Of a stretch of DNA of 64,000 nucleotides, positions 44,157 through 46,430 are shown in pieces (the stretch's first letter is position 1; every line of letters begins with the position of its first letter). This stretch comes from Nemania diffusa. Its lineage: Eukaryota; Ascomycota; Sordariomycetes; Xylariales; Xylariaceae. The stretch lies in the NCBI GenBank assembly GCA_038501195.1, contig JBBPUQ010000008.1:3048501-3112500 (forward strand), in the 5' to 3' direction. Made by a program: the position numbers and the translations under genes. The notes under the pieces were generated by a model. That model was not told the origin of the DNA. It saw only the letters and a program-made list of their open reading frames with translations, and did no database searches.

Positions 44157-44370
44157 ATTTACGAGAGTAGAAAGCTGGGTCTTTAAAAGACTAGTCTAGG
44201 GGGTATCGTGTTTTCGAAGCTTGGATTAGGATGCTTATTCTGGGCTTGTATCGCGGCACGCATGTGATGGATCAATTATTAAGTTAACATTGTCGAAACA
44301 CCGCTGAGAAGATGACGGGCGGCCGAGGTATACCTATCGAAAGAGCAACCCCCAGGGTAGATAGCAGGGT

Positions 44371-44409
44371 ACGGCGTCCCAGAGGGCAAACTGTTCGAAA
44401 ACTAATTTC
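44371..44409 (+). repeat. Left terminal inverted repeat of the foldback element
   Basis: Starts TACGGCGTCCCAGAGGGC and continues through CTGTTCGAA. It matches the reverse complement of 46386-46424 apart from one substitution and one 1 bp length difference in an A-run. Confidence 0.85.
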
Positions 44410-44539
44410 TTAATACATATACACCAAAAAGTACTAAATAGTACCTTGTTTTAACTGTATATATATTAGTATATATAGTATAAAAAGAAATAATAGAGTA
44501 ATAAATACAAAATAGTAAAAGCAAATAACTAGCAGTAAC

Positions 44540-44957
44540 TAGTAAAGCCGATAGGTCTACTAAAGACCTATCAATAAAACTAATAGGTCTATTAAAAACC
44601 TGTTAATAGGACTAGCAAAGACTAATAAAGCCGGTAGATCTGCTAAAAACTTATCAATAGAACTAGTAAAAATTAATAAAGCTAATAGATCTGCTAAAAA
44701 CCTGTTAATAGAACTAGTAAAGACTAGTAAAGCTAATAAAATTACTAAAAACTTATTAATAAAACTAATAAAAACTAATAAAACTAGTAAATTTATTAAA
44801 AACTTGTTAATAAAACTAATAAATTAATTAAAAACTTATTAATAATATTAGTAAAAATTAATAAAATTAATAAAATTATTAAAAATTTATTATTAAAACT
44901 AATAAAAATTAAAACTAATAAATTTATTAAAAATTTATTAATAAAATTAATTAAAAT
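44540..44957 (+). repeat. Left arm: about eight 51-bp tandem units
   Basis: Units of the form AAAGCCGGTAGATCTGCTAA...AATAGAACTAGTAA. Some are shortened to about 41-44 bp. Outer units keep GCCGATAGGTCT and ACCTGTTAATAGG; inner ones read AAATTTATTAAAAATTTATT. The loss is by C-to-T and G-to-A changes. Confidence 0.85.
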
Positions 44958-44960
44958 TAA

Positions 44961-45189
44961 TTATTATTATTATTATTATTATTATTATTATTATTATTAT
45001 TATTATTATTATTATTATTATTATTATTATTATTATTATTATTATTATTATTATTATTATTATTATTATTATTATTATTATTATTATTATTATTATTATT
45101 ATTATTATTATTATTATTATTATTATTATTATTATTATTATTATTATTATTATTATTATTATTATTATTATTATTATTATTATTATTAT
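44961..45189. repeat. Uninterrupted (TTA)n microsatellite, about 76 copies
   Basis: About 229 bp of perfect TTA repeat, followed by a short (TA)n run. It lies beside the inner end of the left arm. Its purity contrasts with the strongly diverged repeats around it, so it expanded recently or is kept uniform by slippage. Confidence 0.95.
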
Positions 45190-45654
45190 ATATATATATA
45201 TATATATTAATTTAAAAATAGTTTTAAAAAATTTAATTAAAAAATTAAATAAAATATATAATATTAATATTAAAAAAACTTTATATATATATATATATAT
45301 AAATAAATTTTAATAATTTTTTTTATTTAATAAAAAATTTAATTATATATATATATATTATATTAAATTATTAATTTATATATTTATATATTTATTATAT
45401 AATAATAAAATTTAATTTAATTTATTAATATAATAATTTTTATTTATTTTTATTAAATAATTATTTTATTATATAATTAAAAATTATATTTTAAATTAAT
45501 ATTTTTAATAATTAAATAATTAATAATAATTTAATTATAATAATAATATATAAAATATTAATTATTATATAATAATAAAAAAATTAAACTTTTTATATAA
45601 TAAATATATAATTTTTAAAAATATAATAATATAAATAAATTATTTTATTATATT

Positions 45655-46275
45655 TTTATTTATTATTATTATTATTATTTTTAATAAATATTTAATAAAT
45701 TTATTAATTTTTATTAATTTTATTAATAAGTTTTTAATAAATTTATTAAATTTATTAATTTTTATTAATTTTATTAATAAGTTTTTAATTAATTTATTAA
45801 TTTTATTAATTTTTATTAGTTTTATTAATAAATTTTTAAAAATTTTACTAGTTTTATTAATTTTTACTAGTTTTATTAACAGATTTTTAACAGATTTACT
45901 AGTTTTATTAGTTTTTACTAGTTTTATTGACAGGTTTTTAGCAGATCTATCGGCTCTACTAATTTTTACCAGTCTTATTAATAGGTCTCTAGCAGTCTTA
46001 CCAGCTTTACTAGTCCCTACCAGTTCTATTAACAGGTCTTTAACAGACCTACTGGCCTTACTAGTCCCTACCAGTCCTATTGACAGGTCCCTAACAGTCC
46101 TACCAGCCCTACCAGTCCCTACCAATCCTATTAACAGGTCTCTGGCAGACCTACCGGCCTTACCAGTTTCTACCAGTCCTATTAACAGGTCCCTAGCAGA
46201 CCTACCGGCCCTACCAGTCACTGCCAGTCCTATTAACAGATATCTAGCAGACCTACCCAGCCTTAGCAATTTCTG
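45655..46275 (-). repeat. Right arm: about eleven to twelve 51-bp tandem units, inverted
   Basis: Same unit family as the left arm, read on the minus strand. Since 51 is a multiple of 3 the arm stays open for 209 codons (46269-45640) as a 17-residue repeat. That repeat drifts from GRSARDLLIGLVGTGRA at the outer end to NKFIKNLLIKLIKINKF near the centre. The Arg/Gly-to-Lys/Asn drift is what G-to-A mutation produces. I read it as a repeat, not a gene. Confidence 0.85.
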
Positions 46276-46385
46276 CTAGTTTTATTAATAAGTTTTTATA
46301 ACGTAATATATTCGCTAATCATTTACACTATATACTTTTATTAAATACTTACTATATACTGCATTAAAGTATATTTAATGACTCA

Positions 46386-46424
46386 AAATTAGTTTTCGAA
46401 CAGTTAGCCCTCTGGGACGCCGTA
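46386..46424 (-). repeat. Right terminal inverted repeat of the foldback element
   Basis: Reverse complement of the left terminal repeat; ends ...CTCTGGGACGCCGTA immediately before the GCAGGG duplication. Confidence 0.85.
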
Positions 46425-46430
46425 GCAGGG

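What the first reader, a model, noticed from the sequence alone, without database searches (positions are those of the whole stretch)
44365..46430. Foldback-like element whose arms decay in a mirror-image gradient toward the centre
Seen: near-identical ~39 bp terminal inverted repeats, a GCAGGG direct duplication outside them, and two opposing arrays of 51 bp units. In both arrays G+C falls unit by unit from the outer edge to the core. Known: foldback transposons have long inverted termini made of tandem repeats, and RIP converts C to T in duplicated DNA. Inference: this may be a fungal foldback family in which RIP, or cruciform-dependent mutation, is strongest at the axis of symmetry; or the array grew outward by adding fresh units at its edges. 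The gradient is a readable record of the order of mutation or amplification. I know of no described element with this combination.
Basis: partly seen in the sequence, partly recalled or inferred. Interest (0 to 1): 0.88.

Follow-up and report, generated by a model that had tools for sequence, protein, structure and literature searches.

The report
Transposon arms recording graded C-to-T mutation
This is a real jumping-DNA element of a fungus whose two repeat-built arms fade from normal sequence into DNA nearly stripped of C and G, leaving a readable record of a genome-defence mutation process that appears to be guided by the base before each C.

Summary
Window 44370-46424 is a 2,055-bp element with 39-bp inverted ends (38/39 alike), a GCAGGG target duplication and two opposed 51-bp-unit arrays that lose C and G towards an AT-only core. 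The genome holds 21 paired elements with related ends, 1.3 to 41 kb; 16 of 20 checked have exact 6-bp duplications. Some 14-kb members encode a DDE transposase. Ends, duplication length and transposase point to the IS3EU superfamily; the window copy is a non-autonomous foldback-like form. In 128 units from 14 arms of seven elements, 1,865 changes are C>T or G>A and 45 the reverse. The "gradient" is a plateau of cleaner units plus, where measurable, a 45-164 bp fade at the core edge. AT blocks elsewhere in the window fade likewise, so a cruciform is not needed. Several cores are 98-100% identical between sites, so they were probably saturated before transposition. Unexpectedly, in two mutated 14-kb copies mutation follows the 5' base: pyrimidine-C sites 82-85% mutated, purine-C sites 20-22%. 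Classical RIP follows the 3' base (CpA). Array turnover probably adds to the pattern. Empty alleles could not be tested.

The parts
44364..44369 (.). left target-site duplication GCAGGG
   Evidence: sequence; exact 6-bp duplications in 16 of 20 elements checked
44370..44408 (+). left terminal inverted repeat
44409..44527 (+). left subterminal non-array segment shared with the other six foldback-type elements
44528..44944 (+). left array of 51-bp units (limits approximate); C+G kept falls from about 0.6 to 0.09 inward, the whole arm also partly mutated
44960..45189 (.). (ATT)n tract at the inner edge of the left array
45190..45668 (.). AT core; 412 of 416 bases of 45225-45640 identical to the copy on contig C4
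45669..46282 (-). right array of 51-bp units (limits approximate); C+G kept rises from 0.03 to 0.90 outward
46283..46385 (-). right subterminal non-array segment
46386..46424 (-). right terminal inverted repeat
46425..46430 (.). right target-site duplication GCAGGG

Best explanation
Window 44364-46430 is an insertion of a non-autonomous, foldback-like DNA transposon with IS3EU-type ends. It was most likely moved in trans by a DDE transposase encoded by 14-kb relatives with closely similar ends. Its interior had already been driven to almost no C or G by the host's repeat-directed C-to-T mutation (RIP-like) before it jumped, and it carries that saturated core from site to site. The mirror-image gradient is the two outward-fading edges of the mutated domain falling on tandem arrays, so each 51-bp unit reports the mutation dose at its position: pyrimidine-C sites go first, purine-C sites later, until nothing is left to mutate. 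Shown: ends, duplications, family, transposase gene, mutation direction, context, position order, and core identity between sites. Inferred: mobilisation in trans, that the cores were saturated before they moved, and that a falling dose (rather than age alone) makes the fade.
For: Twenty-one pairs of ends, paired by me from position and orientation; of 20 checked for duplications, 16 are exact 6-bp, 3 differ by one transition, 1 has none. The 14.1-kb element C10a carries an intact DDE/rve transposase exon (PF24764 7e-10), with D202, D261 and E347 among the columns invariant in an alignment of it and 25 homologues. In 128 units of 14 arms, 1,865 of 3,779 C/G positions changed C>T or G>A, against 45 reverse changes and 74 transversions (units with more than 2 transversions were left out, so the last number is held low). 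Fade width from 0.70 to 0.15 kept is 45-164 bp in the 10 of 14 arms where it can be measured. Array-free edges fade too: the 14-kb core's left edge over about five 51-bp bins, window AT blocks over one to five. Cores: 98-100% per kb among five 14-kb elements whose ends are 77-100% alike; 98-100% over the aligned core of C8a and C7a; 412/416 between the window copy and C4s. Context.
Against: No empty allele could be looked for. The plateaus lie inside repeated DNA and are hardly mutated in many arms, so a dose that falls with distance from the core needs a reason that I have not shown (loss of colinear homology in arrays of different length, or renewal of units). I could not align inner decayed units of different copies, even where cores are 99% identical, so the arms recombine or turn over. 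Identical cores could also come from gene conversion between copies. In the subterminal non-array segments of the seven foldback-type elements the 5'-pyrimidine preference is not seen (CC 14/126, TC 7/98, AC 21/301, GC 9/140). Not every core is shared: much of the middle of C3b and C2b aligns at only 62-73% per kb, and part of C8a/C4b at 78-86%. The left edge of the 14-kb core does not clearly lose pyrimidine-C first and its right edge is abrupt. The ends of the window copy and of C10a differ at 4 of 39 bases, so use of one transposase by both is not shown.
Confidence: 0.6

Rival explanations
1. Age gradient: the arrays grow or are renewed from their outer, still-similar units by unequal exchange or slippage, so outer units are young and inner units old; the fade is a calendar of amplification under steady C-to-T mutation.
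For: Plateaus range from none to about 9 units while fade widths are of one order. Clean units in one arm are slightly more alike than between arms (4.32 v 4.85 differences; identical pairs 8.6% v 1.1%; 22 of 500 label shuffles reach the difference; 36 units). One arm alternates two unit types (C10c left). The window copy and C4s share a core at 412/416 but have different unit numbers.
Against: The within-arm effect is weak. The same kind of fade occurs where there is no array.
Confidence: 0.26
2. Axis-focused mutation: pairing of the inverted arms, or a cruciform, makes mutation strongest at the centre of symmetry.
For: All five short copies are mutated most at their centre.
Against: Arms of one element fade at different depths (C4s 1.1 v 7.0 units, C2s 3.8 v 8.6, C1s 4.6 v 1.3). 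The core was probably saturated before insertion. Comparable fades occur at edges of AT blocks without inverted arms.
Confidence: 0.06
3. Selection keeps the outer sequence (ends and outer units, for example as transposase sites), and unconstrained inner sequence simply decays.
For: The inverted ends stay intact or nearly so in elements mutated almost to their ends.
Against: Plateau length varies from none to about 9 units, and some elements keep both ends while a whole arm is mutated (C6a right, C10c right). The low mutation of the first 40 bp in C9a and C3a (1 of 9 and 1 of 8 pyrimidine-C sites at the two ends, in each copy) can equally be an edge effect.
Confidence: 0.08

Closest known systems
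IS3EU superfamily of DNA transposons (including Styx of Zymoseptoria)
   Same: TA..TA ends, in fungi of the form TAYGG..CCRTA, inverted repeats over 30 bp, 6-bp duplications, DDE transposase with other genes (PMC10045372, PMC12730594, PMC10853768; passages read)
   Different: Opposed 51-bp minisatellite arms and a core almost without C or G are not mentioned in the passages read; no phylogeny against Repbase IS3EU proteins was possible
Foldback transposons (FB, Galileo, Tetris of Drosophila)
   Same: Long inverted termini built of tandem repeats (recalled; for Tetris, PMC4079207, I saw only the listing and start of the abstract)
   Different: Drosophila elements of other superfamilies with other duplication lengths (recalled); no C-to-T gradient that I know of
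Repeat-induced point mutation (RIP)
   Same: C>T on both strands in repeated DNA, running to near-complete AT; C5-methyltransferase genes are present, one matching PDB 9baq at 6e-114 (that this entry is Neurospora DIM-2 is recalled)
   Different: Signatures in the passages read are given by the 3' base (CpA, CpT, CpG; PMC4352252, PMC12543289; T. reesei PMC5496416), with TpCpG of Microbotryum cited in PMC4352252. Here the 5' pyrimidine dominates, CC most of all
AT-rich elements (ATEs) of Aspergillus flavus
   Same: AT-rich, RIP-type DNA homologous at non-allelic sites and present or absent between strains (PMC9910759, abstract and passages)
   Different: The term 'target site' does not occur in that text and 'inverted repeat' only twice; 65-93% A+T there, about 96-99% in most of the cores here

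Membership tests
IS3EU superfamily | termini TAYGG..CCRTA | tested here: met
   33 of the 40 ends of the 20 pairs read start TACGG, 6 start TACAG and 1 GACGG; both ends of the window copy fit
IS3EU superfamily | 6-bp target-site duplication | tested here: met
   16 of 20 exact, 3 with one transition, 1 none; one further pair not examined
IS3EU superfamily | transposase of the IS3EU DDE clade in related autonomous copies | tested here: inconclusive
   PF24764/rve matches and invariant D202, D261, E347; the model of this region has low confidence; no IS3EU reference proteins on hand
Foldback-type element | long inverted termini made of tandem repeats around a middle | tested here: met
   seven elements examined
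RIP | C-to-T on both strands in repeated DNA | tested here: met
   ends of C9a against C10a: 844 C>T/G>A and 1 other substitution; C3a: 835 and 1
RIP | preference set by the 3' base, CpA first | tested here: not met
   5' base dominates: C9a CC .93, TC .80, GC .23, AC .17; by 3' base CA .59, CG .50, CT .48, CC .39, so CpA leads only weakly
RIP | premeiotic, RID-dependent | not testable with these tools
   needs crosses and gene removal

The most novel reading that the evidence does not exclude
This fungus mutates repeats with a process whose target is pyrimidine-C (CC and TC) rather than CpA. That would mean a distinct mutator, such as a cytosine deaminase or a methyltransferase with a 5' preference. 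Its IS3EU-like transposons have become largely immune by carrying cores in which almost no target base is left, and they spread while only their ends and transposase genes remain exposed. The tandem arms then act as a dosimeter for the process.
Probability: 0.35. Interest if true: 0.8.

Novelty: new variant of a known kind. Interest (0 to 1): 0.62.

Why it matters
Mutated-out repeats are usually treated as dead. Here near-identical AT-saturated cores of about 10 kb sit at different sites inside inverted ends with target duplications, so saturated DNA seems to have moved as transposon cargo. The arrays give many near-identical 51-bp reporters at known distances from the mutated domain, which makes the spread and order of repeat-directed mutation measurable from sequence alone. 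The 5'-pyrimidine rule, if it holds in relatives, would question reading every fungal C-to-T signature as CpA-type RIP; the tests in the passages that I read go by the 3' base.

Tried and rejected
Polinton (first guess, from size and 6-bp duplication): ends begin TACGG and the transposase matches PF24764, so IS3EU was preferred; polymerase or capsid genes were not searched for, and the AT cores cannot be read. Target in a tRNA gene: no tRNA found in the window. Shared ancestry of the two mutated 14-kb copies: the first count looked strong (652 shared sites v 414 expected) but mostly vanished when the trinucleotide class was allowed for (630 v 571), so I do not rely on it. Shared decayed units as proof that one gradient was inherited: the longest common stretches lay in or near the range of simulated independent decay (24-69 bp in simulation, up to 74 bp observed). 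All-against-all blastn of AT-rich elements timed out; MAFFT pairs and 24-mers were used instead. No homologue of the 408-aa passenger protein at E<=0.001. Fold search with the transposase model not done, because its catalytic part has pLDDT of about 30-79 per ten residues. The aligner is blind to transitions, but the unit consensus was taken from clean units, which favours calling losses over gains. Mended after re-checking: 1,893 lost C/G positions include 28 transversions, so 1,865 are transitions; a supposed shared marker unit between the window copy and C2s was dropped, because its parts differ in order; confidence in the best explanation lowered from 0.62 to 0.60 for these.

Full report
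What is there. The element runs from 44370 to 46424 (2,055 bp; 16% GC), between exact GCAGGG duplications at 44364-44369 and 46425-46430. Its 39-bp ends differ at one base. Inside lie a left array of 51-bp units, an (ATT)n tract, an AT core, and an opposed right array.

It is a family. The window lies in an unnamed 55.6-Mb, 16-contig genome. The inner 20 bases of the end occur 44 times at up to 2 mismatches, with 0 for the reversed control. With the 18-base tip search, position and orientation give 21 pairs: five short (1.3-2.06 kb) and sixteen of about 13 to 41 kb, plus three single ends. Of the 20 pairs whose flanks I read, 16 have exact 6-bp duplications, 3 differ by one transition, and 1 (C4a) has none. 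One pair, on C2 near 5.32-5.35 Mb, was not examined. The 51-bp arms were found in seven elements: the window copy, C4s, C2s, C1s, C6s, the 14.6-kb C6a and the 23.3-kb C10c.

The likely source of movement. Five 14.1-kb elements were read. In three (C10a, C10b, C4a) GC-normal gene regions flank a core of mostly 1-4% GC. C10a encodes a transposase exon with PF24764 (7e-10), weaker rve and Clr5 matches, and a second exon. Aligned with 25 homologues it keeps D202, D261 and E347; that these three are the catalytic residues is my reading. The genome gives 26 match rows to this exon: four full-length and uninterrupted at 99-100% identity; C10b and C4a broken by small changes; the others with stops inside. 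Only one of the four lies in an element that I read; one lies about 2 kb from a single end; two have no matching end. The closest named relatives are from Xylaria (54% and 48%); the host was not identified. Ends, duplication length and DDE type fit IS3EU as described in PMC10045372, PMC12730594 and PMC10853768 (passages read), but clade membership was not tested. The 14-kb ends differ from those of the window copy at 4 of 39 bases; movement of the foldback forms by that transposase is inferred.

The core was probably saturated before the jump. Among the five 14.1-kb elements the core is 98-100% identical per kilobase (98% only in one border kilobase), while the ends are 100% alike in three copies but about 77-80% alike in most end windows when these are compared with C9a and C3a. 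C8a and C7a share core stretches at 98-100% beside ends at 88-91%. The window core matches C4s on another contig at 412 of 416 bases. Against this, C3b and C2b align at only 62-73% per kb through much of their middle, and C8a and C4b at 78-86% in part. Gene conversion could also make cores alike.

The mutations. The ends of C9a against C10a show 844 C>T/G>A and one other substitution; C3a shows 835 and one. In 128 units of 14 arms, 1,893 of 3,779 C/G positions are lost, 1,865 of them by C>T or G>A; there are 45 reverse changes and 74 transversions, the last held low because units with more than two were left out. All 12 arms with more than three units have negative rank correlation with depth, 11 of 12 at p<0.05 (C6s left is not significant).

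The shape. In ten of 14 arms the kept fraction falls from 0.70 to 0.15 within 45-164 bp, at depths from 1.1 to 8.6 units; four arms (window left, C6s right, C6a right, C10c right) never reach 0.70. The two arms of one element fade at different depths, so the mirror image is only approximate. AT edges without arrays also fade: the left edge of the 14-kb core over about five 51-bp bins and window AT blocks over one to five, while the right edge of the 14-kb core is abrupt. At the window edges near 12.1 and 33.2 kb pyrimidine-C sites thin out before purine-C sites; the edges near 1.7 and 2.7 kb are too short to say much, and the left edge of the 14-kb core does not show it. At the outer ends of C9a and C3a the first 40 bp are nearly spared (1 of 9 and 1 of 8 pyrimidine-C sites) and mutation rises further in.

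The context rule. Classical RIP is read by the base after C. Here the base before C decides: in C9a CC 299/323, TC 346/433, GC 93/406, AC 73/434; in C3a 284/323, 333/433, 95/406, 89/434. The arms follow the same order: sites such as C36, C47 and C24 are lost first, C4, C23, G22 and C42 last, in the window copy too (pyrimidine-C 95/190, purine-C 23/120). In the window's 12.25-32 kb AT block, 1,533 of 1,692 remaining C's (both strands) follow a purine, against 2,190 of 4,645 and 4,384 of 8,752 in two GC-normal stretches. Exception: the short subterminal segments of the seven foldback-type elements show no such preference. The genome has a strong match to a solved C5-methyltransferase (recalled as DIM-2), other C5-methyltransferase genes and three OTT_1508-type deaminase matches; which enzyme acts is unknown. 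That C-to-T change at pyrimidine-C is also the habit of APOBEC-type deaminases, and of ultraviolet damage, is recalled.

Literature. Ten searches were run. Among the rows that they listed, no title or abstract start describes a fungal foldback element with graded mutation, or RIP governed by a 5' pyrimidine. The library lacks most subscription journals. Passages of seven papers were read, with the abstract for one of them.

Verdict. A real foldback-like form of a known kind of transposon, not met in these searches, on which a RIP-like process with an unusual context has left a fading edge along tandem arms. The fade as dose is preferred to fade as age because array-free edges show it too, but array turnover is real and both may act.

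Noticed in passing
window 12250-32000: A 20-kb AT block (8.6% GC) with no 24-mers shared with the five short foldback copies (126 and 176 with the long C6a and C10c); 91% of its remaining C's follow a purine.
   Followed up: partly
window 342-612, 1107-1259, 1510-1575 and 1740-2690: GC-rich 24/48-bp, 9-bp and 16-bp arrays followed by a 950-bp block of 2% GC; possibly another element with arrays beside an AT core.
   Followed up: no
G000:C3:2451024 and G000:C5:1107360: Uninterrupted, 99%-identical transposase exons with no matching inverted end near them.
   Followed up: no
L014:3318-4541 (-): 408-aa passenger frame of the 14-kb element; 6,648 candidates shared words but none scored E<=0.001, and no Pfam match.
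   Followed up: partly
L013:1295-1822 and upstream: An open frame at the other end of the 14-kb element, with a cysteine-rich stretch and apparent short introns; no Pfam match.
   Followed up: no
G000:C16 (20033, 37271, 54507, 71708) and C14 (79307, 96551): A TACGGTGTCCCAGCAGGC motif repeats about every 17.2 kb on small contigs, suggesting long tandem units.
   Followed up: no
G000:C3:2005862, C9:892559, C9:2022548, C4:3610015, C3:3185930: More distant transposase relatives (22-27% identity), each with many stops: probably another mutated family of the same kind.
   Followed up: no
window 57803-59014 (+) and 7890-9638 (+): Rad10/Ercc1 homologue and an MFS transporter among the neighbouring genes.
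   Followed up: no
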